Part shown: positions 42,228 through 49,963 of the stretch, piece by piece
Layout of the letters: each line of letters begins with the position of its first letter
How positions within the stretch are numbered: the stretch's first letter is position 1
Source: Cylindrospermum sp. NIES-4074
GTDB lineage: Bacteria > Cyanobacteriota > Cyanobacteriia > Cyanobacteriales > Nostocaceae
Direction: 5' to 3'
NCBI GenBank assembly: GCA_003994795.1
Contig: AP018269.1
Coordinates: 4,923,677-4,987,676, forward strand
DNA length: 64,000 bases
Program-made: the position numbers and the translations under genes
The notes under the pieces: model-generated
Databases searched by the model: none
What the model saw: the letters and a program-made list of their open reading frames with translations, nothing else
Told to the model about the DNA's origin: nothing

Positions 42228-42788
42228 ATGACCGTAACCACCGCCAAATGGAGTCTAGAAGACTATCACCGCATGATTGAAATTGGTCTTTTAGAAAGTC
42301 GTCACGTTGAGCTATTGAACGGAGAAATTGTTAATATGCCACCAGAGGGGCCGGAACACGCCCAACTTAGCACAGATGCAGCTGACTACCTGCGAGAACT
42401 CCTAACTCAAAAAGCACTAGTGCGCGATGCTAAACCCATTACCATCCCAGAAAGCAATTCTGAACCAGAACCAGATTTAGCAATTGTCGAACCAAACCGC
42501 GCTATTTATCGAACCCGTCACCCTTACCCAGAAAACATTTTTTGGCTAATTGAATATGCTAATAGCAGTTTAAGCAAAGATTTAGACACCAAACGCAAAA
42601 TCTATGCAACTGCTGGAATTCCAGAACATTGGGTTGTAGACTTAAAACATCACCAAGTGAAAATCCTGCGTCAACCAGCCGATGGTGATTATCGCTCAGA
42701 AATTACCTTAACAGAGGGAGAAATCAGTCCCTTAGCGTTTCCAGAAATTACCATATCTGTACAGCAATTGTTGAAAGGGGAATGTTAG
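42228..42788 (+). CDS. Uma2 family (DUF820) endonuclease-like protein
   Basis: 186 residues with GGAG before the ATG. The restriction-endonuclease-like core is PEPDLAIVEP (Asp), then FWLIEYANSSLSKDLDTKRKIYATAGIPEHWVVD with Glu-x-x and Lys of the PD-(D/E)xK pattern. The family is hugely expanded in cyanobacteria and its biological role is unclear. Not linked to neighbours. Confidence 0.88.
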   Translation: MTVTTAKWSLEDYHRMIEIGLLESRHVELLNGEIVNMPPEGPEHAQLSTDAADYLRELLTQKALVRDAKPITIPESNSEPEPDLAIVEPNRAIYRTRHPYPENIFWLIEYANSSLSKDLDTKRKIYATAGIPEHWVVDLKHHQVKILRQPADGDYRSEITLTEGEISPLAFPEITISVQQLLKGEC

Positions 42789-43029: not shown

Positions 43030-43914
43030 TTACAACTTCTGCAACAACTCCTGAGTTAACTGATTGAAAGCCTTAGAACCAGCCGAATTAGGATTAAGCA
43101 AAACCGCCGGCATAAAACTATCAACAGCCTTAGCCACATTCACATCAACCGGAATTTGTGCCTGACAAATTTTATCAACACCAAAATCTTCAATAACGCG
43201 GTGCATCACTTGTTTGTAATATCTACCAGTAAGCAGGTTAGCGCTAGACATACTAAAGACAATACCCAGCATTTTGATATCAATCTTAGCTTCTATTTCG
43301 TGACTATCTTTTAATTGGGCAATGCGTCTTTCAAGTAATTGAATACCCACTACAGATAAAGGTTCTGGTTTAGCAGGCAGGATATAGAAATCACTAGCAG
43401 CTAAAGCGCTACGAGTCAAGAGATTATAACCAGGAGCGCAATCTAAAAGAATAAAATCATATTCTTCACGAACTGGTTTTAAAATGTTATTAATCAAAAC
43501 CCTTTCAAAGCGGTTCCAAATCCTTTCAAAATCTTGTTCACCCAAAGCAACTGATTGTTGATGCAGCATTTCTGAAACAACAAATTCATCATATAAATCA
43601 ATATCTCCCGGTAACAAATCTAGTCCAGGGAGATTACATACTTTAGAGTGAACAATATCCCGAATTGTCAGTTTAGCATCAGGATCAGGATTGATAACTT
43701 CGTCGAGCAAATACCTAAAAGTTTTTCTTTGTTTGCGACGCTTGGCAAATTCCAAAGGTGACATCAAACTGAGTGTGGCACTAATTTGGCTATCTAAATC
43801 TAAGACAAGCACCCGCTTACCATGATTTTTCGCCAAACAAGTCGCTAAATTGACAGTGAGGGTAGTTTTACCAACACCACCTTTCATATTTGCCGTTGCA
43901 ATTACATATCCCAT
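43030..43914 (-). CDS. ParA family ATPase
   Basis: 294 residues, with GAGGAA before the ATG. The deviant Walker A KGGVGKTTL (11-19), switch-I DLDSQ and Walker B FILLDCAPG are those of ParA/Soj/MinD-type ATPases. The long insert after VRE and the LLNPNSAGSKAFNQL tail fit the chromosomal ParA group. No parB follows. It is downstream of the nuclease/translocase operon on the same strand, with a 165-base gap, so it may be part of it or may be independent. Such ATPases position DNA or complexes in the cell. Confidence 0.9.
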   Translation of the reverse strand: MGYVIATANMKGGVGKTTLTVNLATCLAKNHGKRVLVLDLDSQISATLSLMSPLEFAKRRKQRKTFRYLLDEVINPDPDAKLTIRDIVHSKVCNLPGLDLLPGDIDLYDEFVVSEMLHQQSVALGEQDFERIWNRFERVLINNILKPVREEYDFILLDCAPGYNLLTRSALAASDFYILPAKPEPLSVVGIQLLERRIAQLKDSHEIEAKIDIKMLGIVFSMSSANLLTGRYYKQVMHRVIEDFGVDKICQAQIPVDVNVAKAVDSFMPAVLLNPNSAGSKAFNQLTQELLQKL

Positions 43915-44079: not shown

Positions 44080-46983
44080 CTAAGCTGAAGGTAAGCGAAT
44101 AGTTTTTACTAATAGACTTTGTAAACGATATAGTTGAGCGCCTGCTTGGTAAAGTAAATCACCTTTGCCCAACAGATAAGCTGCTGCTGTTTGTTTTCCC
44201 CCCAAGACAATGCTAGAATCTGCCTCACTGGCGGTGCGTAGGGCAACTCGTCCAGGCAAATTTGAGCGAATGATTGGGGTGACAATACTGGCTTCTGGGC
44301 GTTGTGTGGCAATAATGAGATGAATTCCCGCAGCCCTTGCCATTGCTCCCAGACGCTTAATGCTTTGTTCCAGTACTGTGCGGATTTCTTTTTCTGCCAT
44401 AAAGTCGGCATATTCATCAAAAATGCAGACAATGCGGGGTAAAGGCTGGGGAGAACGTTGATTGTAGGTACTCAAATCTGCACACTTAGCTTTTTCAAAC
44501 CGCTGGTAACGGGACTCCATCTCTGCAACCAGTCCTTCCATCAATTCTATGGCGCGATCGCTATCTTTGACGACTGGGGAATACAACCAAGGCATCTGCT
44601 CAAATTCTGGAAAGGTGACGCGCTTGGGATCAACCAGGGCGATTTTCAAGTTTTGGGGAGAATGGCGGTAGAGTAGACTCAGAAGTAGCGATCGCAAAAA
44701 CTCACTCTTACCACTGCCGGTTGTCCCACCCACCAAAAAATGACAAGTATTCGGATCAGATAAATCAGCCTCTAACAATTCCCCTTCAATACTCACCCCA
44801 ATAGCAATTTTGACAGATGCTGTTGCAGGTAAAGATTGCGGCTGAATATACTCCTCAAACCCGGCAATTTGCCTATCTGCACGGGGCAAATCAATACTCA
44901 CATATCCAGCTTGAGGAGCAATTAATGGTGGATATTCTAACCCCAGTTGTACTTGTAAATCAGCCGAAAATTTCAGCAATGAATTTACTCTTATACCGAG
45001 ATTAGGTTTAAGTTTTACTCGGATAAATGCCGGACTCACAGCAGCACCATGATACTCGACACCAACCCCAAAAGATTGCAGAGTATTAACCAAAGCTTCC
45101 CCTATTTTATCAGCATTGATAACTGTCTCCTCCCTTGGTAAGGGGCGTTGGGGAGGATCTAAATTTAGCTCAACATCAATAGATTGCTCCCCCCTTTTTA
45201 AGGGGGGTTGGGGGGGATCTAAATTTAGCTTAACATCAATAGATTGCTCCCCCCTTTTTAAGGGGGGTTGGGGGGGATCTAAATTTAGCTCAACATCAAT
45301 AGATTGCTCCCCCCTTTTTAAGGGGATTTGAGGAGGATCTAAATTTAGCTCAACATCAATAGATTGCTCCCCCCTTTTTAAGGGGGGTTGGGGAGGATCT
45401 AAATTTAGCTCAACATCAATAGATTGCTCCCCCCTTTTTAAGGGGAGCCACTGCGTTGGACGGGTTTCCCGGCTTAAAGCAAGTGGCGTGGGTTGGGGGG
45501 GATCTGATTCGACATCAAACAAAGTCTGACACTTTTGTTGCTGGGGGCAAATTTCGCACAAGTGAGGTTGAGTTGTGGCTGGCGGTGGGTTAGGATTCGG
45601 TGCTTCCCAAGCCAGCCATTGCTGCATCTGCAATAATTTATAGGGAATTAATTGATGCACCGTACTTTCTAACTGTTCCCAAGAATATTTATACTCTTTA
45701 AACTCTGGTAAAACGCAGTAAACCGCAGAGTCAACCGCTACCTTTTTCTTTTGCCATAGCATATAACTATAGAGAGAAACTTGGGCTAATTGTGCTGCTG
45801 GATCTACAGGTTGATAGGTTTTAAACTCCACCATACAAAGGCGTTTTAGTTGACAGTTGAAAACCAAGCAATCAAATTCTCCTCTTACCAGTTGCTTGGT
45901 TCCATCAGGTAAATTAAAGTAATGCTCAATATTGCGTTCTTCAGAGACAAAAGTATTACCAATAACTGTCTCTGCACTGCAAAAACGCCGATTAATTATC
46001 AATAATTCAGTGAATTGTCTAATTAGTCCTTGCATTCCCTGCCAAACTTGCAGTAAAGCTGATGCTTTACTAGCATCCTTACTAACAGTTTCTTGTAAAT
46101 AGGGAAAAAATTTGATTTGATAAAATATTTGTTGAATTTGCGACGAGATTTCGTCTATATTTAGCTGGGATGCAGGTAAATTAAACAGGTCTTTAAATTG
46201 TGTTTCAGTAATAACTAATTTAACAAAATCATCGGCTAGTTGGTGAAAACAGTTACCAATGCCTGAAGAGGTATTTTTAGGAAAAAATATTGCCTTATCG
46301 CCAAATTTATGATTTAGATAAAATAGGCGGGGACACTCAAAAGCAACTCTGACTTTAGTAGGAGTTAAAGATGAACTTTCGGATTTAGCTGTTGATTTCT
46401 TAGAAACATTCTTTACCATAGTAAAAATATCACTGGCTGCATTAGGGTTAGAAATTTCAAGTAAGCGGCGATGCACAGCAGCCAGATAAACTGTATCCAT
46501 CGCTGCATATTGTAGCTGCTTTTGACTCAGAGGGCGCTTTCCCCAGTCGCTTTTTCCTTCTTCTGCATCTACATTAGAAAAGTGACAAAGTTCAGCAGCT
46601 AAGGTTTTTAGTTTTAAGTTGGTAGTTTGTAAGACTTTGCGGTTAATCTTTTGGGCTAGTTTTAAAGTACAAGTTACATTTTGTGCTAAATTTTTCCCTA
46701 GATACTTTAAATCAAAGCTAGCGCTATGAAAGACTTTTTCTATTTGGGGATTAACCATAATTTGGTTAATAAAAAAATCTGCTAAATCCTGCTTACCCAA
46801 AACATCGAATAGGTAAGCAGATTCCCCAGTTAAATCTGTAGGATCAGCCAATATCTGAATTAATGCTAATTTGGGAAATGGGGTATTCCAATCAGCAACT
46901 TCTGTATCTAGCCAGAGGGTTTTAGCTAAGGCTAGTTGAGATATTTGCTTATGGATTTCAGAAGCGTCTGTCAGATAGTGCAT
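44080..46983 (-). CDS. Three-module fusion: DEDDy exonuclease, Cas4-like Fe-S nuclease, FtsK-like translocase
   Basis: 967 residues. Residues 1-185 are an RNase D-type exonuclease with Asp26/Glu28 (WLDTEV), Asp91 (SASFDLKYL) and the Tyr159-x3-Asp163 pair, so DEDDy is complete. Residues about 208-490 are a RecB/Cas4-like nuclease: Cys217, His247, Asp371, Glu386-x-Lys388 and Gln398, with Cys476, Cys479 and Cys485 completing a four-Cys iron-sulfur site. Residues 514-613 are five 20-residue repeats. Residues about 630-967 are an FtsK/SpoIIIE motor with Walker A GGTTGSGKS (752-760), DPKR and Walker B IFDEYADF. There are no membrane helices. The parts imply a machine that moves along DNA while degrading it. 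It is third in an operon behind a P-loop ATPase gene (29-base gap). Confidence 0.9.
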   Translation of the reverse strand: MHYLTDASEIHKQISQLALAKTLWLDTEVADWNTPFPKLALIQILADPTDLTGESAYLFDVLGKQDLADFFINQIMVNPQIEKVFHSASFDLKYLGKNLAQNVTCTLKLAQKINRKVLQTTNLKLKTLAAELCHFSNVDAEEGKSDWGKRPLSQKQLQYAAMDTVYLAAVHRRLLEISNPNAASDIFTMVKNVSKKSTAKSESSSLTPTKVRVAFECPRLFYLNHKFGDKAIFFPKNTSSGIGNCFHQLADDFVKLVITETQFKDLFNLPASQLNIDEISSQIQQIFYQIKFFPYLQETVSKDASKASALLQVWQGMQGLIRQFTELLIINRRFCSAETVIGNTFVSEERNIEHYFNLPDGTKQLVRGEFDCLVFNCQLKRLCMVEFKTYQPVDPAAQLAQVSLYSYMLWQKKKVAVDSAVYCVLPEFKEYKYSWEQLESTVHQLIPYKLLQMQQWLAWEAPNPNPPPATTQPHLCEICPQQQKCQTLFDVESDPPQPTPLALSRETRPTQWLPLKRGEQSIDVELNLDPPQPPLKRGEQSIDVELNLDPPQIPLKRGEQSIDVELNLDPPQPPLKRGEQSIDVKLNLDPPQPPLKRGEQSIDVELNLDPPQRPLPREETVINADKIGEALVNTLQSFGVGVEYHGAAVSPAFIRVKLKPNLGIRVNSLLKFSADLQVQLGLEYPPLIAPQAGYVSIDLPRADRQIAGFEEYIQPQSLPATASVKIAIGVSIEGELLEADLSDPNTCHFLVGGTTGSGKSEFLRSLLLSLLYRHSPQNLKIALVDPKRVTFPEFEQMPWLYSPVVKDSDRAIELMEGLVAEMESRYQRFEKAKCADLSTYNQRSPQPLPRIVCIFDEYADFMAEKEIRTVLEQSIKRLGAMARAAGIHLIIATQRPEASIVTPIIRSNLPGRVALRTASEADSSIVLGGKQTAAAYLLGKGDLLYQAGAQLYRLQSLLVKTIRLPSA
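45145..45444 (-). repeat. 60-bp in-frame repeats derived from an intergenic repeat
   Basis: Five 60-base units encode PLKRGEQSIDVELNLDPPQ-type repeats in the linker of the fusion protein. The unit contains CCCCCCTTTTTAAGGGG, the core of the dispersed intergenic repeat, plus a TAAATTTAGCTCAACATCAAT spacer that is specific to this array. Confidence 0.9.
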
Positions 46984-47012
46984 TGGCTGATAACATCAAA
47001 TTTAAAGGTAGA

Positions 47013-49094
47013 TTATTTTTGAGGGACTAAGCAAATTAATTGGGCTGCTGGCGGTGCTTGAGGGTCAAGAATGTTAATTTTATTTTCCTGACATAGTTGT
47101 TGAATCAATACATTAATTTGAGATTCACTCACTGTTGAAAATTTGCTGCGGGCATTTTCAATTAAAATATGTCTTGCCAGAAAGTGCTGAGTTGCGACTA
47201 GATTTAATAAGTAATCTTTACATTCCGTCACCCCTGGTGGTACTGGTGTTACGGCAACTTTTGTGTCATTTTTTTTAACCGTAACCTTAATTGGCTCAAC
47301 AATCTTTTTAATTATTCCCAAATCCTGTAATAAAGAGCAGCCTTCTAATATTTTCGACTCACGGATGAGGGTTTGTAAATTTTTTAAGCCAATGGTTTTA
47401 TTTCCTATTACTAAGTCTCCCTCACGAGCTTCTCTAACTAAGCTTTGATAAGTAGCTAAGTAGTGAACAGAGTTAATATGTGGGGTGATGTGATGATGAG
47501 GAAAATTGGTAAAAATTTTGATATAGCTTTGATAGCCCTTATTGTTGGAATTACCTAAAACTTCTGCACGAATGAGATACAAGGTTAAAGATGGATCTGT
47601 TTTAAGTGCTTTATTACAAGCTTCCATGACATAGTAGAAACTAGTCATATTACCATCTTCTGTCCAGACAACTCCTAAACGTCCAGACTTACCTAGCAAT
47701 TGATATTCTAGTGAATAACTAGCATACTTTGTGCCAGTAAACAGAGGAGTTTTAATTTTATCTACTTGCAAAGTTACTAAAGCTTCTTGCAACATCTGAA
47801 TTAGATCCGGTGCGGAGAAATGGCGAAACCGTGTGATTTGCTGTTGAACCTTATTAAACTCATCGAGCCATTTCAATTTAAAGGCTGCTAGTAGTGTTTG
47901 CTCATCATTTTCTACTTCAAGTTCTCTGTCAAATTTAAACTCTCCTTTGCTACCAGCAGCCAACCATTCTTTGTAAGATTGAAAAACAAATTGACCAAAT
48001 CTTATTACATTTCTAGGGTCAGTTTTGCCACCTGGAAATTCTTCTTCTAAATATTGACGATTTAACGGATAAATAGGAGATGAAGGTTGAGGATTTGCTA
48101 TGCTGTTTAGAGAATAAAGACGAGATGCTAAAAGTGATTCTGCCTGTTGTAAATTGATAGGTTTTAAAGAAACTTGTTGATTTACTCTGTCTTTATCGGA
48201 CTGATCCATTTGTTTATAATGGTTTTTCCAAATATCAGTGTTGAGGCTGATAATAATCAGGAAATTTTTGTCCTCATCGTGAATTTTAGTATTGATATCA
48301 AACAATTTTTGCAAAGCCCGTGAACCATCAGAAAAGCGGGCAATGCTGTTTAGCTGATCAAAGCACAGTACAATTGGTTGAGTATCGCCAGCGATTCTAC
48401 TAAAATTAGCTAGGGTTTCTCTTGCTGCTTCTTCTGTATCAATAGACTTTTTAATGCGTAAATTTTGCAGAGAATCTTCGCTCAAGTCATCACCGCGCAA
48501 CCACTCACAAGCTAAGTAGTAGAGTTGTAAATTATTTAGGTCATGCAGCACGCCGAAAAAAATGTCTGCATTGTATATACCTACTTGTTTGTAGATATCT
48601 TTGAATTTGTTGATGAATCTCTTTTTATCACTTCGCAACAAATCAAGTACGTCATCTTTTAAAATGCGATCTTTAACACCGCGTTGCTTGATAGCAGTTA
48701 AAACCTTATCTAGCCAAAGCAGTAACTGAGAATCTTTTTGTCCCTCTGGAACTTTCATTAAACTATCAACGGTGTAACGCAAAATATGCCGCCAAATGCT
48801 ATCGATTTGAGGAAATGGCGGAATATAAACAAAAAATGCTTTAGCATTGAGTTTTTTCTTAAGCCTACCCAAAAGATAACTTTTACCAGAACCACCATCT
48901 CCATCAAGTATTAAAGTGCGTGTGTGATGATCTTGAGCAACTTGAGCAAGTGTTGCTTCTATTGTGGAAATTGCGCCTTGATGGATAGAATCAACTGTAG
49001 GTTCTGGCTGCTGCTGTTCAAGCCAAAAGTTATTAGAAGTAAAGTTATCGAAGGGGTTGATACTCCTGAGAATAATTTCATCGATAGATGCCAT
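47013..49094 (-). CDS. P-loop ATPase of the nuclease/translocase operon
   Basis: 693 residues, with AAAGAG before the ATG. Walker A is DGDGGSGKS (64-72) and Walker B IVLCFDQLNS (Asp246 followed by Gln, not Glu). Residues 1-390 form the ATPase with STAND/ORC-like helices; residues about 400-600 are an alpha/beta domain (LYLIRAEVLG, YQSLVREAREGDLVIG) of unknown fold; residues about 610-690 read as a winged helix. Replacement of the catalytic Glu of the Walker B by Gln may mean slow hydrolysis or a DNA-sensing switch. It lies 11 bases after the winged-helix gene and 29 bases before the fusion gene. Confidence 0.75.
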   Translation of the reverse strand: MASIDEIILRSINPFDNFTSNNFWLEQQQPEPTVDSIHQGAISTIEATLAQVAQDHHTRTLILDGDGGSGKSYLLGRLKKKLNAKAFFVYIPPFPQIDSIWRHILRYTVDSLMKVPEGQKDSQLLLWLDKVLTAIKQRGVKDRILKDDVLDLLRSDKKRFINKFKDIYKQVGIYNADIFFGVLHDLNNLQLYYLACEWLRGDDLSEDSLQNLRIKKSIDTEEAARETLANFSRIAGDTQPIVLCFDQLNSIARFSDGSRALQKLFDINTKIHDEDKNFLIIISLNTDIWKNHYKQMDQSDKDRVNQQVSLKPINLQQAESLLASRLYSLNSIANPQPSSPIYPLNRQYLEEEFPGGKTDPRNVIRFGQFVFQSYKEWLAAGSKGEFKFDRELEVENDEQTLLAAFKLKWLDEFNKVQQQITRFRHFSAPDLIQMLQEALVTLQVDKIKTPLFTGTKYASYSLEYQLLGKSGRLGVVWTEDGNMTSFYYVMEACNKALKTDPSLTLYLIRAEVLGNSNNKGYQSYIKIFTNFPHHHITPHINSVHYLATYQSLVREAREGDLVIGNKTIGLKNLQTLIRESKILEGCSLLQDLGIIKKIVEPIKVTVKKNDTKVAVTPVPPGVTECKDYLLNLVATQHFLARHILIENARSKFSTVSESQINVLIQQLCQENKINILDPQAPPAAQLICLVPQK

Positions 49095-49105
49095 AAACTT
49101 GCTCT

Positions 49106-49963
49106 TTAATTCACTGTGAGTTGAATGAAAAATAGCGGACTTCCTGAACGCTGGCTAATTCCGGCGTTAACTTGCTCCTGGGTGTAGTGTTGAGCATCTA
49201 CAAGCCCTCTCAGTTCAATTTGGTCATTTTTTTGCAAACGATACAGCACTTGATCTAATTCTTCCCGTGACAGAGGCGGTTGTAACTTTTGCCGTAGATG
49301 AAAAATGGGTAAATAATTTTCTGTACCCAATTCCCTATCTAATTTCTCGATAATTCGTAAAATTTCTTCATCACTGGGATTGAGGATTGTTTCTACACCT
49401 GACTTTTCATCAAGAGGTAGTGGAGGAGAAACTGGTTCTGGCTTAACCCGTAAATTCTTCCGCAAAAATCGTAGGTAATTACTCAGCAGTTCCAAGCTGA
49501 TGACAGGGTTAGAGCCTTTGTTAGGGCTGTATTCATCCCGTAAATACTCAATTCCTCTTGCAGTTAGCCAAACTTCAGCTTTATTCTTTGCCTTTTTGAT
49601 TTCGGCTGCAATCAATCCCCGTTCACTCAAGCTTTTCAATATCTCGCTTCGTTCCGCAGCTTTTAGTGAGGTGATTTTGCTGGGGGTGATTTTACCAGCA
49701 GCTTTACTTATCTTCTCCAGCGCTTTACGTTCTTTGTCACTGATGGGTAACTCGGCTGAATCTAGTTTTAGTAGGGCTTGACCAGGGGGTAAAATCTTAA
49801 CTGTGGCAATCTCACGAGAATAGTCTACCAATTCGCGATCGCCTAAATCTCGACAAATCTTATCCTTCCCTTTAAAAGAGTTGAAGGCGCTAGCACTCAG
49901 GTTGGAGCGATAATTCTCACATCCCAACAGCTTTAAGAGGAACTTTAACTCATTCGTTTCCAT
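49106..49963 (-). CDS. Winged-helix protein, first gene of the nuclease/translocase operon
   Basis: 285 residues. Residues about 75-150 look like one winged helix (ISKAAGKITPSKIT, LKSLSERGLIAAEIKKAKNKAEVWLTARG). Residues about 218-285 form a second (YLPIFHLRQKLQPPLSREEL, LYRLQKNDQIELRGL and a final SPLFFIQL strand), like the wHTH next to ATPases in several DNA-directed conflict loci. No enzymatic motifs. It probably binds DNA and regulates, or docks, the ATPase encoded next to it. I do not recognise a named family. Confidence 0.65.
   Translation of the reverse strand: METNELKFLLKLLGCENYRSNLSASAFNSFKGKDKICRDLGDRELVDYSREIATVKILPPGQALLKLDSAELPISDKERKALEKISKAAGKITPSKITSLKAAERSEILKSLSERGLIAAEIKKAKNKAEVWLTARGIEYLRDEYSPNKGSNPVISLELLSNYLRFLRKNLRVKPEPVSPPLPLDEKSGVETILNPSDEEILRIIEKLDRELGTENYLPIFHLRQKLQPPLSREELDQVLYRLQKNDQIELRGLVDAQHYTQEQVNAGISQRSGSPLFFIQLTVN

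What the first reader, a model, noticed from the sequence alone, without database searches (positions are those of the whole stretch)
44080..49963. Candidate DNA-processing system: winged-helix + P-loop ATPase + DEDDy/Cas4/FtsK fusion
Three genes with gaps of 11 and 29 bases encode a DNA-binding protein, an ATPase and one chain that joins a complete DEDDy exonuclease, a complete Fe-S Cas4/RecB-like nuclease and an FtsK motor. Seen: all catalytic residues (Asp26, Glu28, Asp91, Tyr159/Asp163; Asp371, Glu386, Lys388, four Cys; Walker A and B). Known: each module acts on DNA in repair or defence. Inference: a processive nuclease machine aimed at foreign DNA or at damaged ends. I know no named defence system with this fusion.
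Basis: partly seen in the sequence, partly recalled or inferred. Interest (0 to 1): 0.9.

Follow-up and report, generated by a model that had tools for sequence, protein, structure and literature searches.

The report
Cyanobacterial FtsK-nuclease defence-type operon
A three-gene cyanobacterial operon looks like a DNA-pumping shredder of a recently predicted defence class, and most related genomes keep either it or an unrelated nuclease pair, rarely both.

Summary
Observation confirmed: three tight minus-strand genes encode a winged-helix protein (W), an Orc/Cdc6-type AAA+ ATPase (A) and a DEDDy exonuclease / Fe-S Cas4-like nuclease / FtsK fusion. The 17 residues checked are invariant in 50 of 50 aligned fusions. 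W sits beside A in 106 of 108 distinct neighbourhoods; W-A-fusion occurs in 68. The operon fits a class already predicted in print, 'HerA/FtsK capture' systems (PMC10853773, section 22): a new member, not a new kind.

New here: of 80 genomes of the host family, 42 carry the fusion's nuclease domain, 31 an intact HSDR_N-nuclease/ParA protein (beside a ParB_N-like gene), one both (Fisher p = 1.4e-13; 18 independent pairs, median p = 0.0002). They often share one slot beside a core ParA gene, with remnants of one beside the other. dndC, a DNA phosphorothioation gene, is in 78 of 80 and broken or missing in 4 of the 8 genomes with neither module. These may be interchangeable restriction arms, but no linkage to dnd was found, one fusion genome lacks dndC, and exceptions with both modules exist. 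Function untested.

The parts
49106..49963 (-). W: 285-aa protein with a predicted chain of three winged-helix-like domains; first gene of the operon
47013..49094 (-). A: 693-aa Orc/Cdc6-type AAA+ ATPase; alpha-beta-beta-beta-alpha-beta stretch (aa 428-508) between AAA+ and a C-terminal winged helix; Walker B reads D-Q
44080..46983 (-). Fusion: DEDDy 3'-5' exonuclease + Fe-S PD-(D/E)XK (Cas4/AddB-like) nuclease + FtsK-alpha + FtsK motor, 967 aa
46459..46980 (-). DEDDy exonuclease domain of the fusion (aa 2-175)
   Evidence: D26, E28, D91, Y159, D163 invariant in 50 of 50; nearest solved relatives are NrnC/diDNase and RNase D/Rrp6 types
45526..46368 (-). PD-(D/E)XK nuclease domain with four cysteines (aa 206-486)
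   Evidence: D371, E386, K388, C217, C476, C479, C485 invariant in 50 of 50
45127..45445 (-). 60-bp tandem repeat, 5.3 copies, in the linker of the fusion; not part of the function proposed
   Evidence: the 51 other fusions listed are shorter, 836-931 aa
44884..45114 (-). FtsK-alpha domain of the fusion (aa 624-700)
   Evidence: 1.5e-6
44296..44820 (-). FtsK/SpoIIIE motor domain of the fusion (aa 722-896)
   Evidence: 1.5e-40; SspH is the best PADLOC match; hhalign to one SspH prob 99.9, 38% identity over 262 columns
43030..43914 (-). ParA-family ATPase, 294 aa: a core chromosomal neighbour and marker of the slot, probably not a component
   Evidence: in 79 of 80 family genomes, against 42 of 80 for the fusion's nuclease domain

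Best explanation
The operon encodes a counter-invader nuclease-translocase of the predicted HerA/FtsK-capture class. Inferred mechanism: W and the Orc/Cdc6-type ATPase A bind and mark target DNA, A acting as an ATP-held loader or switch (its Walker-B glutamate is replaced by Gln/Asn). They recruit the fusion, whose FtsK motor pumps double-stranded DNA past its Fe-S Cas4-like nuclease and its DEDDy 3'-5' exonuclease, which cut or degrade it. In the host's family this task appears redundant with a non-homologous module (HSDR_N-type nuclease fused to ParA, plus a ParB_N-like protein): a genome usually keeps one and lets the other decay. Shown: gene content, catalytic residues, predicted folds, conserved order, patchy presence, the either/or pattern and the remnants. 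Inferred: target, activity, order of events, redundancy.
For: The 17 residues checked are invariant in 50 of 50 fusions. W beside A in 106 of 108 distinct loci; W-A-fusion in 68; tandem A A in 21. Modular variation typical of conflict systems: TPR-pentapeptide-DEDD-nuclease-FtsK (L064) and DEDD-protein kinase-FtsK with the nuclease in a separate gene (L077). Copy without the DEDD domain on a conjugative plasmid of Pseudanabaena PCC 7367, of another order. Patchy within genera. Motor closest to SspH and mad8 among PADLOC models; a related motor lies beside dndC-dndD on a Burkholderia plasmid. A has an Orc/Cdc6 fold. Either/or: fusion nuclease 42, intact HSDR_N-ParA 31, both 1, neither 8 of 80, Fisher 1.4e-13; 18 independent pairs on a ParA tree, opposite direction in 13.1 on average, same in 0.2, median p 0.0002 (range 0.0001-0.006). 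Same slot swapped between glycosyltransferase genes and core ParA. Remnants: FtsK piece beside intact HSDR_N-ParA in G077; A without fusion in G282 and G309, and W-A with only the DEDD part in G278, each beside HSDR_N-ParA; broken HSDR_N-ParA in fusion genomes G303, G361, G686, G689. Class description in print: PMC10853773 section 22.
Against: No activity or phage data. Among gene families recurring in 5 or more loci, read by eye, I recognised no defence family beside it; recurrent neighbours include ParA, ileS and glycosyltransferases, so it is not in an obvious defence island. No confirmed relative of A in IMG/VR (600 pattern matches, none confirmed). Nearly every family genome holds one of the two modules (72 of 80), which would also fit a housekeeping role. 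Both modules intact in one locus: L118, L130, L147, G681; and with a divergent HSDR_N-ParA in L080, L127 and G703. In L051, L105, L112 both are present, but the HSDR_N-type catalytic Asp is Gly. The 80-genome HSDR_N-ParA search used one query at E <= 1e-30 and can miss the divergent subfamily, as it did in G191.
Confidence: 0.55

Rival explanations
1. Phosphorothioate-coupled restriction (a specific version of the best explanation, not exclusive of it): W-A-fusion and the HSDR_N-ParA/ParB_N pair are alternative restriction arms of the core dndBCDE-like modification of these cyanobacteria, attacking DNA that lacks the sulfur mark.
For: A dndC match above the curated cut-off is in 78 of 80 family genomes; the host has DGQHR/DndB-like, DndC, DndD and DndE genes. 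dndC is broken or missing in 4 of 8 genomes with neither module (G333, G698, G690, G688) against 2 of 72 others (G142 missing, G270 split), p = 6e-4; in G333 and G698 dndD is also in pieces and dndB is missing or a fragment. 45 of 47 phylum genomes with a strong A have dndC, counting G333 whose A is a fragment and dndC broken. PMC8569181 (passages read) reports that among cyanobacteria dnd clusters are only in Cyanobacteriales and that dndFGH is absent there. The motor resembles that of SspH, from a phosphorothioate-based system.
Against: No dnd gene in 253 fetched loci (L009-L261) except the Burkholderia plasmid locus L181. The phylum overlap follows the clade: within the order it is 45 of 93 with dndC against 2 of 12 without, p = 0.061. 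G142 has the fusion with all residues checked but no dndC; G063 has A without dndC. G201 and G695 have an unbroken dndC and neither module. G333 and G698 are one genus, so the broken cases are about three events; G690's break could be a sequencing error and G688 is a draft.
Confidence: 0.25
2. Housekeeping: the module is a DNA-end processing or chromosome segregation machine, a function that either of two modules can supply.
For: 72 of 80 family genomes have at least one module; RecC family found in 0 of 80 (E. coli control positive; AddAB was not searched); the fusion is the only strong FtsK_SpoIIIE match in the host genome; core ParA beside it.
Against: Lost within genera, strong A in only 47 of 386 phylum genomes, present on a conjugative plasmid, accessory-domain swapping, no FtsK membrane or gamma domain listed by Pfam.
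Confidence: 0.2
3. The either/or pattern is only allele exchange at one hotspot: cassettes replace each other by recombination in the flanks, and have no shared function.
For: Shared flanking genes and the same slot for both cassettes.
Against: In 10 genomes the fusion and in 9 the intact HSDR_N-ParA is not in the ParA slot; none of these 19 has both. Seven are clear relocations (same contig far away, or ParA absent): G679, G286, G142, G342, G240, G168, G701. Of the other 12, 11 are on separate contigs and one is 13 kb off. Decayed remnants lie beside the surviving module.
Confidence: 0.2

Closest known systems
HerA/FtsK capture systems with Orc/CDC6 ATPase (Rakesh, Aravind, Krishnan 2024, PMC10853773)
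   Same: Orc/CDC6 AAA+ with C-terminal wHTH and a domain between them, active REase, FtsK with FtsK-alpha, wHTH protein, 3'-5' exonuclease fused to FtsK in some, pentapeptide fusions and second Orc/CDC6 copies in some
   Different: Here all nuclease and motor parts are one chain in a stable cyanobacterial lineage; the string 'cyanobacter' is absent from the paper's main text (figures and supplements not seen) and the sections read report no either/or partner
SspFGH (PMC8092258, passages read)
   Same: SspH ends in the closest FtsK motor found; three genes with a Walker-A protein
   Different: A does not match SspF and W does not match SspG; no ssp modification gene was noticed beside it (not searched as such); SspH has about 1400 further N-terminal residues
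DndFGH
   Same: Three-gene module with P-loop protein, wHTH protein and HerA/FtsK translocase with a nuclease (from PMC10853773, passages and sections read)
   Different: DndH family TIGR03237 gave no match in 80 genomes, but no control rang either
MADS (mad7/mad8)
   Same: The PADLOC mad8 model matches the motor
   Different: The motor is the only match; no other mad model matched W, A or the fusion
RecBCD/AddAB and HerA-NurA (recalled)
   Same: Motor plus nuclease acting on dsDNA
   Different: FtsK motor rather than SF1 helicase; two nucleases on the motor chain; an Orc/Cdc6 partner

Membership tests
Orc/CDC6 HerA/FtsK capture system | Orc/CDC6-family AAA+ ATPase | tested here: met
Orc/CDC6 HerA/FtsK capture system | inactive REase between AAA+ and C-terminal wHTH | tested here: inconclusive
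   Model has an alpha-beta-beta-beta-alpha-beta stretch at aa 428-508 and a C-terminal winged helix; E479 invariant without Lys two residues on; this domain was not searched alone
Orc/CDC6 HerA/FtsK capture system | active REase | tested here: met
   PDDEXK_1, D371/E386/K388 in 50 of 50; activity not tested
Orc/CDC6 HerA/FtsK capture system | HerA/FtsK motor, one set with FtsK-alpha | tested here: met
Orc/CDC6 HerA/FtsK capture system | protein with wHTH domains | tested here: met
Orc/CDC6 HerA/FtsK capture system | 3'-5' exonuclease fused to HerA/FtsK (a subset) | tested here: met
Orc/CDC6 HerA/FtsK capture system | anti-invader activity | not testable with these tools
   predicted in print, no assay here
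SspFGH | SspH-type FtsK motor | tested here: met
SspFGH | SspF and SspG homologues | tested here: not met
   PADLOC none at E <= 1 for W and A; hhalign against one SspF and one SspG: probability 3.4 and 0.4
DndFGH | DndH (TIGR03237) | tested here: inconclusive
   0 of 80 but no control rang
Phosphorothioate restriction arm | genetic linkage to dnd modification genes | tested here: not met
   tblastn of five host Dnd proteins against 253 loci: only the Burkholderia locus L181
Phosphorothioate restriction arm | dependence on the modification | tested here: inconclusive
   co-decay p = 6e-4 against exceptions G142, G063
Cell-division FtsK | N-terminal membrane domain and C-terminal gamma domain | tested here: not met
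   Pfam lists neither for the 967-aa fusion at E <= 1

The most novel reading that the evidence does not exclude
Nostocaceae-type cyanobacteria carry an ancient core DNA phosphorothioation system said in print to lack a restriction arm. The missing arm is there but unlinked, and comes in two unrelated, largely mutually exclusive forms: the Orc/Cdc6-FtsK-DEDDy-Cas4 machine of this window and an HSDR_N-ParA nuclease with a ParB_N-like partner. Genomes swap one for the other, and tend to lose the modification when they lose both.
Probability: 0.25. Interest if true: 0.85.

Novelty: new member of a known kind. Interest (0 to 1): 0.6.

Why it matters
If the either/or rule holds, two machines with no common descent do the same job, one can be read against the other, and a swap experiment shows it directly. 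If the phosphorothioation link holds, it answers what the apparently solitary dnd clusters of cyanobacteria are for (PMC8569181 calls an original antioxidant role highly probable because restriction components were not seen) and gives a restriction module encoded far from its modification genes, which neighbourhood-based defence finders would miss.

Tried and rejected
ParA (43030-43914) as a component: rejected, it is core (79 of 80). SspFGH membership: rejected at sequence level. Phage or viral origin of A: no confirmed relative in IMG/VR. RecBCD replacement: RecC absent from 80 of 80, so no complementary pattern could be tested; AddAB not searched. Physical linkage to dnd: none found. The HSDR_N-ParA protein on plasmids: no match at 1e-25. 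Whether the Pseudanabaena plasmid or its host has dndC was not settled; the plasmid is not among the 30 listed rows of 2342. No MADS paper among the 10 listed. No solved-structure sequence relative of A at E <= 0.1. PMC8569181 lists dndH among genes enriched in Nostocales, while PMC10853773 (section 12) says earlier DndH counts included proteins sharing only the C-terminal P-loop domain; that the fusion is one of those is my guess, not tested.

Selection effects: alignment A4 came from a scan whose patterns included PIVLCFD[QN], so its Walker-B count (Q or N in 80 of 81) is biased; in A1, 28 sequences not chosen that way, I read Q or N in 27. In one search ORFs without a usable ATG start or stop, with N, or outside the length limits were left out; A3, A4 and A5 also leave out a few of those listed. 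In some searches, 9 of 117 loci were dropped as duplicates (identical longest A). Many loci end at contig ends, so 'no fusion part' in 28 of 108 is an upper bound. One search counts 267 of 388, but many are weak; I read 47 of 386 strong (E < 1e-50), one of them a fragment (G333). 'Fusion present' means its PD-(D/E)XK domain; G353, G229 and G306 have shorter frames (492, 691, 711 aa). 'Intact' HSDR_N-ParA means a full-length match in a frame of about 440 aa or more; G700, counted as 'neither', has it split over two frames.
Full report

How conserved. Strong A matches are in 47 of 386 sampled cyanobacterial genomes, all in the host's order; one further copy, without the exonuclease domain, is on a conjugative plasmid of Pseudanabaena PCC 7367. 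Variants show domain swapping: TPR and pentapeptide repeats added (L064), or a protein kinase in place of the nuclease, which is then a separate gene (L077).

What it belongs to. PMC10853773 (abstract; sections 12, 17, 19, 22 and 26 read) describes neighbourhoods with an Orc/CDC6 ATPase, REases, HerA/FtsK, wHTH proteins and sometimes a 3'-5' exonuclease fused to HerA/FtsK, and predicts counter-invader function. The operon meets the features tested, except that the inactive REase inside A remains inconclusive. Hence a new member of a known, so far only predicted, kind. A follow-up on BREX (PMC12839542, passages read) again treats HerA/FtsK with ORC/Cdc6 and wHTH proteins as a recurring anti-invader theme.

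The slot and the either/or rule. The downstream ParA gene is core: 79 of 80 family genomes. Between it and glycosyltransferase genes, many genomes carry either W-A-fusion or a pair on the opposite strand: a ParA protein with an N-terminal HSDR_N-like domain (weak Pfam match at or below the curated cut-off, D...ExK motif kept) and a ParB_N-like protein. Over 80 genomes: fusion nuclease 42, intact HSDR_N-ParA 31, both 1 (G681), neither 8; Fisher p = 1.4e-13. On a tree of the core ParA DNA, 18 independent pairs differ in the fusion; the other module goes the opposite way in 13.1 on average and the same way in 0.2, median p = 0.0002. ParA is linked to the slot, so this tree may share its history. 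Remnants lie beside the surviving module, for example an FtsK piece in G077 and split or shortened HSDR_N-ParA in G303 and G361. In 19 genomes the surviving module is outside the slot, yet none has both; seven of these are clear relocations, 11 are on other contigs and could be contig breaks, one is 13 kb off.

Limits of the rule. Both modules can be intact together: L118, L130, L147 and G681, and with a divergent HSDR_N-ParA in L080, L127 and G703. In Laspinema and its kin (L051, L105, L112) both are present but the HSDR_N-type catalytic Asp has become Gly; in the other HSDR_N-ParA rows the D-E-K triad is kept, except L104 and L258, which lack that region. The divergent subfamily was not surveyed in the 80 genomes; G191, counted as 'neither', has it, and G700 has the common form split over two frames.

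A possible link to DNA phosphorothioation. dndC is in 78 of 80 family genomes, far from the operon in the host, and the host has dndB-like, dndC, dndD and dndE genes. It is broken or missing in 4 of 8 genomes with neither module, against 2 of 72 others (p = 6e-4). In G333 and G698 the dnd cluster has decayed beyond dndC. PMC8569181 (passages read) reports that among cyanobacteria dnd clusters occur only in Cyanobacteriales, without dndFGH, and takes restriction to be absent. Against: no dnd gene lies near any fetched module locus; the phylum-wide overlap (45 of 47) is mostly shared ancestry (p = 0.061 within the order); G142 keeps a complete fusion without dndC; G201 and G695 have dndC and neither module. 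I rate this link at 0.25.

Mechanism. Best reading: A and W recognise or load on target DNA, the FtsK motor pumps it, and the two nucleases cut and degrade it. That A binds but poorly hydrolyses ATP is inferred from Q or N after the Walker-B Asp. How self is spared is unknown: absence of a mark, DNA ends, or an invader-specific signal are all open. A housekeeping role remains possible because most family genomes (72 of 80) keep at least one of the two modules.

Novelty statement. Listings from the held library showed no title or abstract that describes the either/or pair or a restriction partner for cyanobacterial dnd; I opened five papers, in parts. The library lacks most subscription journals and all preprints.

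Noticed in passing
window 45127-45445: 60-bp tandem repeat, 5.3 copies, in frame in the fusion's linker; short stretches elsewhere in the host genome match that linker region.
   Followed up: partly
L002 (host genome C1:6122304-6122864): DEDD protein in a 307-aa frame, 54% identical to the fusion's exonuclease domain; it may be the source of that domain.
   Followed up: no
L077:10508-13873: DEDD - protein kinase - FtsK fusion, with the PD-(D/E)XK nuclease as a separate nearby gene.
   Followed up: no
L064:3810-8432: 1540-aa version with TPR and pentapeptide repeats in front of the exonuclease.
   Followed up: no
L048, L050, L051, L063, L068, L070, L074: Loci with two tandem A genes (W-A-A); in 10 of 108 distinct loci a ParA-like gene, mostly of the HSDR_N-ParA kind, follows on the other strand within three genes.
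   Followed up: partly
L188:7175-7864: 229-aa gene beside the ParB_N-like gene with a ZorC (EH signature) match, 8.6e-7.
   Followed up: no
G142 (loci L061, L204): Single-contig genome in which neither core ParA nor dndC was found, but W-A and an intact fusion are kept at separate places.
   Followed up: partly
L181:4076-9032: Burkholderia glumae plasmid with dndC, a small protein, dndD and a short FtsK motor in a row.
   Followed up: no
window 42228-42788: Uma2-family putative nuclease gene between ileS and ParA.
   Followed up: no
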